A DNA stretch of 64,000 bases from Marchantia polymorpha subsp. ruderalis (lineage: Eukaryota > Streptophyta > Marchantiopsida > Marchantiales > Marchantiaceae). The translations under genes and the position numbers were made by a program. Position 1 is the first letter of the stretch. Each line of letters opens with the position of its first letter. The notes beneath the pieces are model-generated. The model saw only the letters and a program-made list of their open reading frames with translations, did no database searches and had not been told where the DNA came from. The stretch covers positions 5,334,501 through 5,398,500 of the forward strand of contig AP031353.1 of the NCBI GenBank assembly GCA_037833965.1. Reading direction: 5' to 3'. Positions 6,515-52,800 of this stretch are shown one piece after another.

Positions 6515-7220
6515 CATCCCCGTGATCCAGTAGTGCCACTGCTGCATGGCGCTTAGCTGAGCTGAGTTGCTGAGGGAGGGGAGGGAGATATAGAGAGAGG
6601 GCAGGGATGACGGAGCTTTGGAAACAGTGCTGCTGCTGCTGCTGCTGCTGGAGAGATGTCCGGAGAGACCCAATCATGGGAAAGCGCATCGTCGAGGGAG
6701 GGGAGGGGGGAGAATATGAAGATGCAAAATGCTCGAAGGCATGAATGAATGCGCCCGGACCCGGAAAAGCGTCGTCAACGAAAGTCGATTGAATGTCGAT
6801 GAGACGAAATCGGCGAGGCCATGCAAAAAGGGGGCCCCGGACCCCTCGCGGCCATTGGCCAAGGGGGCGCAAAACAACAAAGTCTACCGTTGATGTGTCG
6901 AGGGGCAGGCAGATCTTTTGGCCCTCGGCGCACAAACGGTTTGAATGCGTCCATGTGTTCTACGGCCGGACATGCTCCCTCCCCTTTCCACTGTGTCTGT
7001 GTGCGCGAGCCTCTGTCAGGACCTCGCAGCCGAACCAGCCCCCTCCCCCCATCCCTCCCTCCCTCTCTCCCTCCCTTCCTTCACTCGCTCGCTTATCACA
7101 TGGCAGTTTGTCTGCACATCCGATTGTCGTTCACTGGCCCTCCTCCTCCTCCTCCTCCTCCCCCCTCACTGAGCTTCCCTCCCCACGCTGGTCAATGCCC
7201 CCCCTCCTTCCCCCATCCCC

Positions 7221-7390
7221 TACCCCCTTTCCTCTTACCCCTTACCCCTTAGCCCTTAGCCCCGTTCCCCCTTCCCATTTACCCTTACCCCTTAGCCCTT
7301 AGCCCCGTTCCCCTTTCCCCTTCGCCATTTAGCCCTTAGCCCTTAGCCCCTAGCCCCGTTCCCTTCCCCATTTCCCCTTACCCCTTAGCA
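7221..7390. repeat. Degenerate CCCTTAC/CCCTTAG heptamer array with G-quadruplex potential
   Basis: The plus strand is built from imperfect CCCTTAC and CCCTTAG heptamers interspersed with CCCGTTC variants, giving a higher-order block that recurs about three times. The minus strand therefore carries many spaced GGGG tracts. It is not the plant telomere heptamer (CCCTAAA), since the A/T order differs. Slippage-driven minisatellite growth is the simplest explanation. Confidence 0.7.
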
Positions 7391-20420: not shown

Positions 20421-22400
20421 ATGTGTTTTATTTACTCTACAAAGAGCATTGGTGGAGTCTATACAGCAGAAATAAATTCACAAGACTACAAATGCTCAAG
20501 TTGTTTGCATACCGTTTTATGTAGGTAGTTTGGATAGTGTGTGTGCTAGAGTACTTATTTCTCATCACAACACCATGGAGGCTTAGCCCATGATTACCAG
20601 TTCAGTTTTTTCTCGTTAAGGATTGATGATGAAATCATCCCTTGTTTTGGCTGTTCATTTGGATCACTTTCACTAACCATCTGTAACATAAGATGATTAA
20701 ATCGTTGGAATGATGACAAAAAAAATGAATGTGGAAAATGTGGAAACTCTTCTAAGACTGGCAAGACGTTTGTTTGGTGTGGTTAGAATGCATACACAGC
20801 ACCATAGTTAGTGTGCTTGCTCAGGGTCCCACACCGTCTCAAGCAGGGAGTATATCAATAGAGATATTGGAAAATAAAATTATATTGGAAAAAATCGATC
20901 ACACGAAACACAAATCAATCATAGAAGCAACCGAATCTCTCCCAGGGCTCGAGAGCGCAGGCAGGGGTGCTCTTATAGCCTCGGTTCTGCTGAGGCATGG
21001 GCCATTCGATCCTCGAGACCGTGCTGCGCGATCTGACGTGAGTCAGATGTGTCATAGATCTGAAGGGCACTACGATCCTTCGGATAAGTGTCGAGTGTCC
21101 GGTCCGGGAAGACCTTCATAATGAGGTCAATGATGCGCTAATTCGTTCGCTTATTTGGGGCCCGATTTAGCGTCGGAATATCTGACAGAGTGCCCGCGAT
21201 TCACGTAGACAGAACGTCGACGAGGTTGACGTTTCCGTGGAGTCAAAGGTGAAGTGTGACGTGCCGCGGTGTTGGAGTTGAAGGGGAAATGGAGTCAGTG
21301 AACCAGCCGTCTTCAACCGTTTGTGGTTGGCTATAGCCGGTCACTTATGCGACGTGCGGCTTGTGTTGTTCTGGGTGGGTGGATGGATGGATTGATGGAT
21401 GGATGAACATCTTCAGATCTGTAACCGAAAGGCCTTTCTGTGCTTCATGATGGACTGATACTATTCGCAGGACTAGGACGCCTGCTGTAGGATAAGTCGT
21501 AGAAGCTGAGAATCCTCTTTAATCATTGGACCCGGTCGTACACATCCTCGAGCTTTTCAGGCCTAGCAGGTCATCCTGAAAGAAACGGATGATCTTATGA
21601 CATCTTTTTCCAGGCTGCGTGGAAAAACTTCTGGAAATGAGGGTCATGACAAATATTTCGCCAACGCAAGTCCGACGGTCAATCTTTTTATTCCCTATCT
21701 CCATGAAACACAAGGGATGTGTTGATCCTCAATTGTGAAAACCCTAATAATAGTATCTACATGTACATATATTTGGTATCTTTCCTTTCAATTTTCCCTA
21801 TGATATTGTCCAGATCCATTGATAAATTTATCAATGAATCTGGACAATATATCCATTCAACAACGAAAACATGAAAATCATATATCAGAGTATTAAATCT
21901 TTGTAGAGCAATGAAGATTAATATTGCTTACTTTGAGAGATAATATAAAATAGAATAAAGTGAAAAGTATGTTCTCGTTAGTTTTTTGCAAAGTTTCTAA
22001 AACTTCGTACCACATGTCTAGCGCTAAAGGAACAAAAAGGTAAACTCTGTGGATAATATTACATCTGGACACTTAAGTTCATATTATCCCTCTCGTCAAA
22101 ACTTCTAAAGAGATATATAAGCACTATTTCTCAAAAGTGTTTTATATGCATCATCCATAATCATAACTTGTTACTCATGGATAAAATAATATAGAGTATG
22201 GAAATGGAAAAGAGAACATTTAAATTATCTATAATTCTGCAACAATAAAGTCCAACCTTATCTCGTAATTCGAGCAATCAAAATACACCTAATTTAAATT
22301 TCTAGATGTAATGAGTTGACGAGAAGATGAACGTCTGTAGACTCTCTCCGATCATTCATCGCAATCAGTGCACGCCAAATTAAAGAACATTAAGCTCGGA
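20421..22400. other. Intergenic DNA with foldback, no recognisable gene
   Basis: A moderately GC-rich patch (about 20940-21360) sits between AT-richer stretches. Its composition, and a TATA-like word in a GC context (CTCTTATAGCC), recall a long terminal repeat, but I could not find paired ends. GGAT/GGTG tetramers occur at about 21376-21406. A foldback at 21802-21853 is listed separately. Confidence 0.35.
21802..21853. repeat. Near-perfect loopless inverted repeat
   Basis: The left arm (21802-21826) and right arm (21827-21853) are inverted copies that differ by one substitution and a two-base insertion. They meet at the palindrome GATAAATTTATC with no spacer, so the strand could extrude as a cruciform or fold as a 25-bp hairpin. 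Confidence 0.8.
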
Positions 22401-32800: not shown

Positions 32801-35800
32801 TACAGTCCAAACAAGATGCTTCAATGGCGACCAGTAAAGAGTCAGTTTGAGCAATACGTGGCATATTGAGCTAAGTTTGCGGATTTAGTCAGGTAGAGGT
32901 GAATTGAACAGGACCAGGTATTGACAACAGGAGAAGGATGCAACAAACTCATAAATATCAAATTCATTGGCATCTTCCGTTGTAGACCAGTTGGTTAGTA
33001 TACTCGGCTCTAACCCGAGCAACTCGGGTTCAAGTCCTGACAAAGTCAGCAGATTCTACACATTCCGTTGCTGGGAATAAAACCCGCCAACAGAATCTTC
33101 CGTTGTAGTCCAGTTGGTTAGGATACTCGGCTCTAACCCGAGCAACCCGGGTTCAAGTCCTGACAAAGTCAGCAGATTCTACACATTCCCTTGGCGGGAC
33201 TTAAACCCGCCAACAGAATCTGTAAAATTTGCTGACTTTGTCAACAGCTTCTACTTTTATGTATCAAGATCAAGTACACTGTGTGACCGTGGCTGAAAAT
33301 AAACGCCACACTCAAAAGCAGAGGAGAACGCTCGATCTTTTTGTCTCATACGACGACAAAAAGAAGAGCCTGCTTCACAACTCTATACAACGAATTCAAG
33401 GAATCTTACCTCGGTGCTTGCATAAAGTTGTGGTTAAAGAACTCTTCAAAGCTCAGTCTCTCAACTGCACAGAACCCCATAGTTGCGTTAATTCTATAAT
33501 TTGCACAAGAGTCGTAGTCAGCGCTTGTAATGAAACACATCTTTCAACAAACGAAGAAGGATCTTTGAGAACAAAAGATTGGAAGAAAGTCATGGTCTTT
33601 CTGTATGCTGGAGACGTACAATGTAGTGATTTTCCCCTCTTTCTTAAGCTCTTCTTTCAAAGGTTCCATTACCAGCTTGCTATCAATATAGAAGATTACC
33701 TGGGTTACGCTTAAGTAGTTTCCGTATCATATCAATACAATCTACGTGTAGCTCAGAAACAATGCCCTCTGGAAACTTGACCTCGTTCGTCCTTACGATG
33801 TTGAGCAGTAACTGATGTCCGAACCATGTACACAAAAACACACGGAAATATAACGTTAAGACATCATGCATCAGTTCCTGACAGCAAAGTATCAAATTAT
33901 ACCTTAAATAGGTCTAACCGACCAGAGAAGACAAAAAGTAGTTATTCAGGGTCACTTCAGCCCGAGAGAGAACCCATTAGAGCAGGTTGGTAACCAATTA
34001 TACAGGATTGTGGCACCATAGATTGCTACCGACAATATCTGCAATGAGGTGCTGCTACTGACCACACGACATATTTTACAAGTAGTAATAAGCTGAAAAT
34101 AAAATTTGACCCACGAATAGGGCAATCATACATAAAATGGAAATTGCAATTGCAGTTTGTTAATTATAATGATAACGTGAGAGTGCAGGTTTAAGTACAA
34201 ATCTCGAGAGTCACAAAGACTGAAAAGGTTGATAGGCATACATAATTTCGCCGGAATCAAATATCTTCAAGCTTGATGCAACTATCTCGTAAAGTCACCG
34301 TCCACTCCTAACGTGTTCTAGTTTGAGATAGAAATTGATAGGAGCTCACAAAATTGGTATCTAGTTGAATACCAATACCCTAGTCCCAACATTGATTCTA
34401 TTTGGCATGATAATGATGGAACACCGAGACATCTCACGAGGAAATGCTCGGCTCGCTGATTGCAAGCCCAGTTTTACTACTACTAGAAAAAACATGTCCG
34501 ACGAAAAAACAAGTGAACGAAAGAGATAGGAGCCCTTGCCTAAACTTGCAAAAGAACTCAGGCAACAGCTCTACTAAGAGCCTGAATAGGCCTACAATAG
34601 GCATCCTGCTGTAGATAATTCACACAATGGCCATGGACTACGACACAAACATGTATTTCTTCTCATGAAATAAGGTAAGGTATGTGATGTGCTCATCAAA
34701 TGAAGACATCATAGTATGAAAGAGGCGAAGTTTATGAGAAGGTTATGAACACCAAATGCTAAATATCTGAAGTCACATGACTCTCATAAGACAACAATCT
34801 CCGCACATGTGGCAAAACTTGGTGAAGAATCTTAATAGATATGTACCTGGACGTGACTGTTTCCGTGGAAAGGAGGGCGCCCAGTAACTAACTGGTAGAG
34901 GATTGCTCCTACGCTCCACAAATCTGCCTGCAAACACAAAGGTAGTAATAACATATAAAACTCGAAATCAGAGGGTCTGAGGTCAATCAAAAGTGATTGA
35001 TTAGCTTTCCAAAATATCACATTCCATATCAGATGTTTCTCATCTTTCTCCACTGCAATGAACGAACCAGACATAGTTCTCCTAGAAAATGAGAAGATAC
35101 GGCCACACAACAAATGTGAACCTTTGCATTGTACTTCTGCCTTTGTAGAATTTCCGGAGCCATGTAGAGGGGTGAACCGCATATGGTCTCAGCCATACCT
35201 TGAGGTTGCAAGGACCTAGCCATCAAACGGAGAGCATTCAATGGATATACTAAGAGGAAAAAAATCGAAGATCAAAATAACATGATAGTCTTCAGTGTCC
35301 ATCATGTGCTTCCTTTTGAATATTCCCCCTGCGTTCAAGTAGCATATAGAAACCTCCATCTACTATACATTCACAATGTAGAATTCTTCTTTGGCGCTTT
35401 CTAACGAAGCACTTCCCAAAGCGGATTGATACTTCCTAAACATACCATAATATAGGCATTTTTACCACGGTGTGATCAGTGGAAGCGTAAAATCTGAGCT
35501 AACTAAACTCATTAGCATTTGCCTCACAATCTAAAGACGGTATACCCAGCGCCCTGGTTGTGTGTGCTAGTGATAGAGTATGAAGAAGAATCGAGAATGA
35601 ATGAGGGAGTCGAACACTAGAAAACTATTGAGAGTGAAGAGGCACTCTCCATTGTGAATTTGTTCCGGCACAATTTTGGCCGCATCGCCTGGACGACGTT
35701 TTGTTCTACTATCGTTCTCAATCTGGTAAAGGAAATGGAAATTCTAAATTAAGGACAAATATTTCGTCCTCCAAATAAAGTGTGAGTGTTACAGATATGA

Positions 35801-41199: not shown

Positions 41200-41275
41200 G
41201 AGGGACCTCACAGCTATTATTAGTTAAGGCCTGAGGTTACTCAGGCGTTAACTAATAATAGCTATGAGGTCCCTC
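41200..41275. repeat. Strong foldback: 36-bp arms, 4-base loop
   Basis: Arms 41200-41235 and 41240-41275 are inverted complements with two mismatches, separated by GTTA. The hairpin is far longer than expected by chance in a window of this size. It could be a microRNA-like precursor, the centre of a foldback element, or inverted ends of a repeat. Confidence 0.9.
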
Positions 41276-49885: not shown

Positions 49886-52800
49886 ATCCAGGAAAGCATC
49901 GGAGATGCGATGATGTTGTTGTGGCCGGCCTCACAACAATCCGTACCTCTGTTTGTGTACCTCTCTGGCTAGCAAGGACGGCCTGATGCACGCCGTGATG
50001 ATGATGCTGGAGCTCAGATGCTTCGGCTGTCCAGCGATCAAAAGATGAAGTCCGGACCCGCGAGCTCGTGGGTCCAGACTCAGGCTGCGGCCACAGTCAA
50101 CACAAAAGAACGGAACCTGAATCTTTGCTGGACATGCATTGGTCTCGAGACTAGAACTTGCCTCTTTTCACTGCCTCGCCCGGGGAGTAGTTGAAATCTC
50201 CCTCCCTAGGCGTAGATCGATCGGTGTCTGTTGGCCTGATCTACTTACTGGGGGCGGGCGCTGGAGTCGGTCTGAGGTCGGTCGTTCGAGGGTGCGAAGT
50301 TGAGAGCCGCTGCTGATCGATGGGCAAACATTCCAGACGCACCTCCACCACTCCAGAGGCAGGGACGGCCCAAGGACAGCGACGTACCTCGAAGGTACTG
50401 TCTAGATCTGAAGGTGGAAGAATTGCAGGGAGCCATCAGAAGCCTTTCGCATCTCAACATCTCAACTTCCGGCGCAATCAATGTCTGCGTCACGGACACA
50501 GGCATCTCTGACAGCGCAACTAAGCGAAATTGGCCGAACCGGATGAGTTCTCGAGCAAGTGCCCGGTTCCAGAAAACCAAGGGACCAGAATGTGTTGTGT
50601 TCTTGTGATGTACGGGTTTATAATCTAATCTAATGAATTGGTTGTAATCGTCGTGGAATCATGTCTGACTTCTGGCGATTTTTAAAAGAGGGCAACTGAT
50701 GATTGGGTGCAGGGCCTGACAGGTCAGAAGGGCTGCCATGAAAACGAGAAAAATCTTCCTTCGCAAGCTGTTTCGAGTCCTGTCTCTTCGGTCTTGACGA
50801 GATGAGCTCTAGCAGCCCCAATTATTATGGCCTGGCCACGCAGTGTGCGTCAGCAGTAACTTCTGCAGATCTGAGCGACTGTCGTACGAGCTGCTCTTGC
50901 ACCGCAGCTCGAAGCTGAGCTTAGCTGCACGGCGTAGTGAGTCTAAGGCATCCCTCTGCTAAGGGATGCATGTGTTTCTGTACGGACGTGCTCTCTCGTA
51001 CGATAAGGAATGAATCTGTGTTCGGCTCTTGTTCCTGCCTTTCAACGATTTGAAGTATATTATTATTCTATCGATGAAAAGGCACCGGTCCCCATGCTAT
51101 TTGGATGCTTGACAGTATCCTGTGACCTTTTCTGCAGGCATGGAAATTTGTGGTTTTGGTGCTTTCAAATTCGATAACTGCATTCTAGGCAGCTATCGAT
51201 CTTGAAGGCATCAAGACCACAAATTTCTACTGTGTTTTATTGCTTATTGTACGGAGCGATGATAATTCAAACCACGAACATTATAGCCGGAAACGAACAC
51301 CGGGAGACGCATGGTACTGGACGCTTCGGGCTTTCAATCCTGGCGAGTCATTCATTACTCATGAATAAAAAACTGTTCATGTCTACGAGTAATGGAACCT
51401 CAGCCATGTTGAATTGCAAGAGTACATGCAATTCAATTTGAAGCACGACGGATTCTCTGCGATGTTGAACTGCTACTCACCTGTAGTTTCCTCTCCACGA
51501 GGTTTGACTTACGACGAACGTACGATGGAATACAGAGTACACGACATGAGTGAATGGTGCGCAGGAAGTTGTTGATAAGAATGAAGGCAACGAGGCATCG
51601 GGAGTAGTGAAAGCTCTGAAACTAGTTGCGGATCTGAAAATGCATGCAGTGCTTCAAACTGCGGTTCGGACATGGCAATCTCAACGTAACGCAGCGTGAA
51701 GCTGGAGGGTACATCAGATCAGAGGTGAGCAAACTGTGGCCTGCTCTTATGCCTCTAAAGTGGAAAATGCCGACTCGCTGTAAAGTCTTTCTCTGCTCTA
51801 ATCTAGTCTACTTAATCAGAAAGCGAACCTGGCACCTAAAGTTCTCTCGCGGATATGCCCGATGAGTATGTGGTATCTCAGGTGTTCCAAATCCCTCGGC
51901 AGAAGACGGGCTACAAGTCGCAAGTCCTTCTAGTCTAGGTTGGCGAGCAATCTCATAAATGCCATCAAATATGCCAAATACTTACAAACACCAGTCCTAT
52001 GAGCAATACTTTGGTCGTAAATCGGTTGACTTTTCTCTGTAAGATGGAACATTGGTGAATAGAATTTCGTCGATCTTTCAACATGCATAGACGAGAAACA
52101 TGTTGAAGAAAAACTTGTTGAAAACGTTGGGATCATTGAGACTGCTTCAGCCTTCGGACATGAGGGATCCCACCTTCGGGGGTCCCACCATTGGCGGGTA
52201 TCCAAATACTTACGTCTCCAAACTCTTTCTCGGGTAATAATTCCTGGAATCAGATTGTTCCCGCATCGTACCGCACTCGTCCCACCATTCGATCTGCAGG
52301 AGTCATTCATACGAGAAGTGACGGCCATCACTTTAAACTGGATCGACGTGGTGTTCATTACCTTCCGCTCTCCGATGCCTGTTCTTGCTTTTAGTGCTAG
52401 CAAATGCACGCTTTCGGTTAGAATTACTGTGTTGTTGTTTTATAACGAAAGAAAAGAAGGCCTGGAAACGAAGAAGTGACTCGAACATTCCACCGAAGTC
52501 TTGAATAAAGTGAAGTAGTATATTCTCAGATCAGCCTCTGTGGAAAATGTAGGCGAATATATGTCCATCGTAAGCAGCGGCAGTAGACTTTCTCATGCCG
52601 AGGCATATTTGAGCTACGTAATGATAAAGCTTGGCACGACAAAGGCCTGTAGGAAATAGCACACATGCAGGGTCGAACACAGTGACGATAAGGATCACTC
52701 TGCCAGTGCGAAGGTACGTCTCTTGGGCAGCGGTCAAACGCACGCACGCTCTCTCTGTCTCTCTCGCTCGCAAGGTGCAGCGAATACAAGTTCAGAGCAG

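What the first reader, a model, noticed from the sequence alone, without database searches (positions are those of the whole stretch)
32976..33242. Tandem tRNA(Glu)-like units with a CUA (amber-reading) anticodon inside ATG1 intron 8
Two adjacent 123-bp units each carry a tRNA(Glu)-like domain with an intact anticodon arm and recognisable A and B boxes, yet both read CTA where tRNA(Glu) has CTC. Copy 2 also has a perfect 8-bp hairpin after the tRNA-like part. Both units contain GACAAAGTCAGC, whose inverted complement follows at 33231-33242. The anticodon change is shared by both copies, so it predates the duplication or has been kept. The 3' acceptor strand is eroded, so a working suppressor tRNA is unlikely. 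A SINE-like family head, or a tRNA-like RNA with another role, is more plausible. The repeat is antisense to ATG1, so polymerase III transcription could collide with the gene.
Basis: partly seen in the sequence, partly recalled or inferred. Interest (0 to 1): 0.7.

Follow-up and report, generated by a model that had tools for sequence, protein, structure and literature searches.

The report
Decayed tRNA-Glu pair with copied-back hairpin
Two broken copies of a plant glutamate-tRNA gene sit inside an autophagy-gene intron; their stop-codon-reading anticodon looks like an accident of decay, and their 3' end was replaced by a back-to-front copy of neighbouring DNA that makes a long hairpin.

Summary
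Two 123-bp units (32972-33094, 33095-33217; 115 of 123 identical) each carry a tRNA-Glu-like domain with anticodon CTA, antisense in an ATG1 intron. The genome search found 24 loci that ARAGORN calls tRNA-Glu(CTC) (a lower bound), and only two other loci with the same tRNA-like part plus tail, on C7 and C3. Both read CGA, so the change at the third anticodon base predates all three loci.

The '8-bp hairpin' is the tip of a hairpin with 38-nt arms. It arose when the tRNA 3' part and its downstream flank were copied in reverse; an un-inverted relative (L030) shows the source, and the joints overlap by 4-5 nt. This fits a replication template switch, then tandem duplication. The arms co-vary (10 of 38 pairs changed on both sides) but without G-U excess (6 G-U, 8 A-C), so DNA-level arm-to-arm copying suffices.

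A suppressor tRNA is very unlikely (4 of 7 acceptor pairs). A SINE is unlikely: few copies, and homology begins 52 bp upstream of the tRNA start. A polymerase III tRNA-hairpin RNA is not excluded; no expression data were available.

The parts
32924..32975 (+). Upstream flank shared with a tRNA-Glu gene 0.7 Mb away on the same contig (L024, C4:6066626)
   Evidence: 85% identity to C4:6066582-6066634, E 1.4e-8; 84% over 120 bp with the tRNA part
32972..33094 (+). Copy 1: tRNA-Glu-like domain (anticodon CTA) plus inverted-copy tail
   Evidence: Rfam tRNA 27.6 bits
33095..33217 (+). Copy 2: tRNA-Glu-like domain (anticodon CTA), A and B boxes without mismatch, plus inverted-copy tail
33163..33210 (-). 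Reverse copy of tRNA T-arm/acceptor 3' strand plus about 22 nt of downstream flank (source order seen in L030)
   Evidence: L030 1548-1595 matches window 33210-33163 in reverse, 87.5% over 48 bp, E 5e-11
33206..33274 (+). Remaining tRNA 3' strand and original downstream flank, direct order
   Evidence: L030 1560-1628 matches directly, 85.5% over 69 bp
33161..33243 (+). Long hairpin, arms 33161-33198 and 33206-33243, loop 33199-33205 (inverted T-loop)
   Evidence: pair changes
33255..33258 (+). TTTT, the only T4 on the + strand between 32972 and 33275; possible polymerase III terminator
   Evidence: function inferred

Best explanation
A tRNA-Glu gene copy, duplicated with its flanks, that has decayed. 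Shown by comparison: the stretch from the T-arm to about 22 nt of downstream flank is present in reverse in place of the tRNA 3' acceptor strand, which makes a long hairpin. Inferred: this was one replication template switch, leaving and returning where the joints overlap by 4 and 5 nt, the return being guided by the self-complementary T-stem. The anticodon change CTC to CTA came before the copies on C4, C7 and C3 separated; C7 and C3 now read CGA. In the window a later 123-bp tandem duplication, with ATCT shared at the joint, made two units. The arms stay complementary while diverging, most likely because one arm serves as template for the other in repeated switches (inferred), not because an RNA is selected. 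If polymerase III still uses the intact boxes, the product would be a tRNA-like plus hairpin RNA of about 160-280 nt ending at 33255-33258 (untested).
For: L030 keeps the un-inverted order and maps to the window directly, in reverse and directly again, with overlaps 33163-33166 and 33206-33210 (letters). The inner hairpin of the tail occurs at exactly three places with up to 3 mismatches, none with the control pattern. The three tailed loci share two substitutions in the tRNA part, one of them in the anticodon. tRNA scores fall from 65.8-67.8 bits in intact genes to 40.0 and 27.6 here, and below the 29-bit cut-off in L002 and L023. L026, a related locus, carries a different inverted tRNA half, so such events recur. 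Pair changes come in adjacent runs (columns 17-20 and 11-13), with 6 G-U against 8 A-C mismatches over the seven group A hairpins counted. Passages of PMC8794818 describe template switching creating stems and giving multibase compensatory changes.
Against: Ten of 38 pairs changed on both sides is also what RNA selection would give, and only three sequences enter that count. Group B hairpins lean towards G-U (14 against 8; binomial p 0.29). A box, B box and T4 are intact in copy 2. L030 is a relative with a T-arm deletion of its own, not the ancestor. A several-step history instead of one switch is not excluded.
Confidence: 0.8

Rival explanations
1. A polymerase III tRNA-hairpin RNA with a function: the tRNA-like head is the promoter, the hairpin is cut into small RNAs (some antisense to the tRNA-Glu 3' end), and T4 ends the transcript.
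For: A and B boxes intact in copy 2 and a single T4 just after the hairpin. Arms co-vary between the three loci: 84.1% of cells paired against 36-41% when slid, 10 pairs changed on both sides against 3.8 in shuffles. Hairpins of score 10 or more follow 7 of 29 tRNA-Glu-like loci. A second group of nine tRNA-Glu-like loci carries a 75-nt hairpin.
Against: No G-U excess in group A. The boxes are damaged in sister L002 (two mismatches in each) and in the A box of L023. The inner 'minihelix' is explained by inverted copying. Loci of each group share descent, so there are few independent origins. No expression data.
Confidence: 0.1
2. A SINE-like retroposon family with a tRNA-Glu head.
For: Related copies lie on several contigs, and group B spans a shared stretch of about 350 bp between C6 and C7.
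Against: Homology begins 52 bp upstream of the tRNA start in group A and about 150 bp upstream in group B, which a transcript started in the tRNA would not carry. Only three loci have the tail. No A-rich tail or target duplication was seen by eye; no systematic test was made.
Confidence: 0.05
3. A working amber suppressor tRNA.
For: CTA in a well-formed anticodon arm in both copies; T-stem 4 or 5 of 5 pairs including one G-U.
Against: Only 4 of 7 acceptor pairs in either copy; Rfam aligns positions 5-66 of 71 only. Sister loci read CGA.
Confidence: 0.01

Closest known systems
Nuclear tRNA-Glu(CTC) genes of the same genome and their pseudogenes
   Same: 92-93% identity over about 72 nt for copy 2; intact A and B boxes
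   Different: 3' acceptor strand replaced, anticodon CTA, tandem duplicated, long hairpin tail
Template-switch hairpins in RNA genes (PMC8794818; search listing and passages seen)
   Same: New stem made from an inverted copy of adjacent sequence; inverted loop; runs of adjacent two-sided changes
   Different: Here the source is a decaying tRNA gene in a plant; no RNA function is shown
tRNA-miRNA-encoded RNAs (TMERs) of murine gammaherpesvirus 68 (only search listings seen; anatomy recalled)
   Same: tRNA-like head followed by a hairpin; possible polymerase III boxes and T-run
   Different: No evidence of transcription or processing here; hairpin explained by inverted copying; no common descent claimed
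tRNA-derived SINEs (recalled)
   Same: tRNA-like head with A and B boxes, related copies on several contigs
   Different: Upstream homology, few copies, no tail seen

Membership tests
Functional (suppressor) tRNA | Seven-pair acceptor stem | tested here: not met
   4 of 7 pairs in both copies
Functional (suppressor) tRNA | CUA anticodon in an intact arm | tested here: met
Functional (suppressor) tRNA | Mature, charged product | not testable with these tools
   no RNA data
tRNA-derived SINE | 5' end at the tRNA start | tested here: not met
   shared sequence from 52 bp upstream
tRNA-derived SINE | Dispersed multicopy body | tested here: not met
   tail at three loci only; the search scores best candidates only, so counts are lower bounds
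tRNA-derived SINE | Target duplications and 3' tail | tested here: inconclusive
   looked at by eye on flanks; none seen
Template-switch hairpin | One arm is an inverted copy of adjacent sequence, with the source order known from a relative | tested here: met
   L030 against window
Template-switch hairpin | Short homology at the switch points | tested here: met
   overlaps of 4 and 5 nt
Template-switch hairpin | Single event on a dated branch | not testable with these tools
   no related species of this plant in the held collections
TMER-like tRNA-hairpin RNA | tRNA-like promoter head, hairpin, T-run | tested here: met
   (sequence features only)
TMER-like tRNA-hairpin RNA | Transcribed and cut into small RNAs | not testable with these tools
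   no RNA data

The most novel reading that the evidence does not exclude
tRNA-Glu-headed hairpin loci (groups A and B, about 16 in all) are a plant class of polymerase III tRNA-hairpin RNAs, created by template switching, some of whose small RNAs would be antisense to the 3' end of tRNA-Glu itself (the C3 and C7 arms contain 24 nt that match the reverse of tRNA-Glu genes at 96-100%).
Probability: 0.07. Interest if true: 0.75.

Novelty: new member of a known kind. Interest (0 to 1): 0.33.

Why it matters
It shows how a CUA-anticodon 'tRNA' can appear by decay and mislead annotation. It is also a readable plant case in which an un-inverted relative, the inverted product and its diverging copies survive in one genome. 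Two-sided pair changes here look like RNA covariation but need no RNA function, a caution for structure-based gene finding. If the loci prove to be transcribed, they would show how new small-RNA precursors can start from tRNA genes.

Tried and rejected
Suppressor tRNA and SINE: set aside as above.

An abundant mobile family marked by the 3' motif ACTTTTATGTATCAAGATCGA: with up to 3 mismatches there are 14 sites, against 8 for the reversed control pattern; with at most 1 mismatch there are 3, all beside tRNA-Glu(-like) units. So it is shared flank, not an abundant repeat.

A known RNA family for the hairpin: only sub-threshold hits, let-7 on both strands (29.3 and 24.7 bits, cut-off 53.5), MIR821 (21.7, cut-off 249) and a group II intron model (17.4, cut-off 49), taken as chance.

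Phage and plasmid records: no match, as expected for a plant nuclear locus.

Hairpins as a general feature of tRNA 3' flanks: 0 of 57 other tRNA genes at score 9 or more, against 15 of 633 window tiles.

Rows left out of the mismatch count: L137, L026 and L027 were not counted, only the inner 27 pairs of L023 were, and only one hairpin of L010.

Paper searches: (tRNA, SINE, suppressor and Marchantia terms) listed nothing that by title or abstract start describes this; I read none of those papers, so this is not proof of absence. The species (perhaps the liverwort Marchantia, from recalled chromosome number and genome size) was not tested.

Full report
Check of the observation. The sequence holds two units of 123 bp, 32972-33094 and 33095-33217, identical at 115 of 123 positions. 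ARAGORN reads both as tRNAs with anticodon CTA. Rfam gives copy 2 40.0 bits over model positions 5-66 and copy 1 27.6 bits, just under the cut-off of 29, against 65.8 and 67.8 for two intact tRNA-Glu genes of the same genome (L009, L010). Copy 2 has A and B boxes without mismatch, copy 1 one mismatch in A. The units lie between kinase matches and MIT_ATG1 matches of an ATG1 gene on the minus strand, so they are antisense to it; the intron number was not verified.

Relatives. A search of the window's own genome (241 Mb, nine contigs) with both units gives 37 matches, a lower bound. Of the 29 loci scanned from it (L002-L030), ARAGORN as tRNA-Glu(CTC) (counted by locus). Two other loci match tRNA part and tail: C7:8191884 (L002, 79%) and C3:5132476 (L023, 77%). 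A pattern for the tail's inner hairpin finds three places, one at each of these loci, with 0 (C3), 1 (C7) and 3 (window) mismatches, and none with the reversed control pattern. Further tRNA-Glu loci are related through their flanks: L024 shares 52 bp upstream; L030, L010 and L026 share the 3' motif TTTTATGTATCAAGATCGA or a near form. L002 and L023 are themselves longer duplicates, 597 bp at 76%, and L030 and L026 match over 650 bp at 90%.

The anticodon. Against the intact genes, the three tailed loci share a T-to-C change in the D-arm region and the C-to-A change at the third anticodon base; C7 and C3 also changed the middle base, giving CGA (my reading of the alignments). So CTA is a step in the drift of a pseudogene lineage, older than the tandem duplication, and not preserved in the sisters. 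In group B, L134 also shows CTA in a badly decayed copy, by my reading; ARAGORN calls no tRNA there.

What the tail is. L030 is a tRNA-Glu copy with a 5-nt T-arm deletion and ordinary order: tRNA 3' end, flank, local hairpin, end motif. In the pairwise comparison (window coordinate = index + 31475) this stretch maps onto the window three ways: the tRNA part directly, ending at 33166; 48 bp in reverse at 33163-33210 (87.5%, E 5e-11); and 69 bp directly at 33206-33274 (85.5%). The overlaps, 33163-33166 and 33206-33210, are 4 and 5 nt (letters). The inner part of the hairpin therefore resembles an acceptor/T-arm minihelix read backwards, with the T-loop inverted. The simplest history is one template switch out to the flank, reverse copying to the T-stem, and return through the self-complementary T-stem (inferred). 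The related locus L026 carries another inverted tRNA half with other end points (L030 1532-1589 in reverse, 85.7%), so such events happened more than once in this group. The tandem duplication has ATCT shared at its joint.

Are the arms held together? On the alignment of the three tailed loci, 84.1% of cells pair, against 36-41% when partners are slid and 76.0% in shuffles; 10 of 38 pairs changed on both sides, against 3.8 in shuffles. The changes come partly in adjacent runs (columns 17-20, 11-13). Mismatches in seven group A hairpins are 6 G-U, 8 A-C and 15 others, binomial p 0.79: no sign of wobble tolerance in the transcript. Eight group B hairpins (of nine loci) give 14 G-U, 8 A-C and 25 others, p 0.29, a lean towards G-U that is not significant and rests on shared descent. 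Arm-to-arm copying in replication explains group A without RNA selection; passages of PMC8794818 propose that mechanism for RNA stems, while its authors call its role in maintaining short stems less clear. I hold this as the better reading, not as proven.

Wider setting. Hairpins of score 10 or more follow 7 of 29 tRNA-Glu-like loci (8 of 29 at 9 or more). At 9 or more they follow 0 of 57 other tRNA genes, and occur in 15 of 633 window tiles. In a further 15 tRNA-Glu-like loci, 2 reach 9. A second group (B: L119, L122, L133-L139) has nine loci with tRNA-Glu-like sequence and a hairpin of about 75 nt; of 20 predicted pairs 4 changed on both sides in some member. Homology in group B extends about 150 bp upstream of the tRNA start. 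Loci of each group share descent, so this is few independent origins. The window has three other hairpins of similar strength (scores 30, 21 and 19 against 23 here), so hairpins are not rare in this genome.

Verdict. A decayed, tandemly duplicated tRNA-Glu copy whose 3' end was rewritten by reverse copying. Shown: anatomy, relatives, shared anticodon change, inverted copy, co-varying arms. Inferred: a single template switch, arm-to-arm correction, lack of function. Not tested: transcription, processing, effect on ATG1.

Noticed in passing
L119, L122, L133, L134, L135, L136, L137, L138, L139 (contigs C5, C6, C7, C8): Second group of tRNA-Glu-like loci with a hairpin of about 75 nt (AAGCATTG...CAATGCTT), two pairs of them clustered (C8:23212929 and 23213632; C6:16381608 and 16387095), partly pre-miRNA-like.
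   Followed up: partly
L120, L121, L123, L125, L127, L129, L131, L132: tRNA-Glu(TTC) genes followed within about 1-15 nt by a tRNA-Phe(GAA) gene: a repeated gene pair in 8 of the 15 loci fetched.
   Followed up: no
41200-41275: Strong hairpin with 36-nt arms in the window, nearly perfect; one partial match elsewhere (C6:14761790, 38 bp, 92%).
   Followed up: partly
51143-51227 and 21803-21850: Further strong hairpins in the window (39-nt and 22-nt arms).
   Followed up: no
L026 (C2:18924451, minus): tRNA-Glu copy interrupted in the T-loop by a perfect-looking hairpin and followed by an inverted tRNA half: a complex, probably serial inverted rearrangement.
   Followed up: partly
7206-7389: CCTTACC/CCCTTA-type tandem repeat array, units of 7, 36 and 43 bp.
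   Followed up: no
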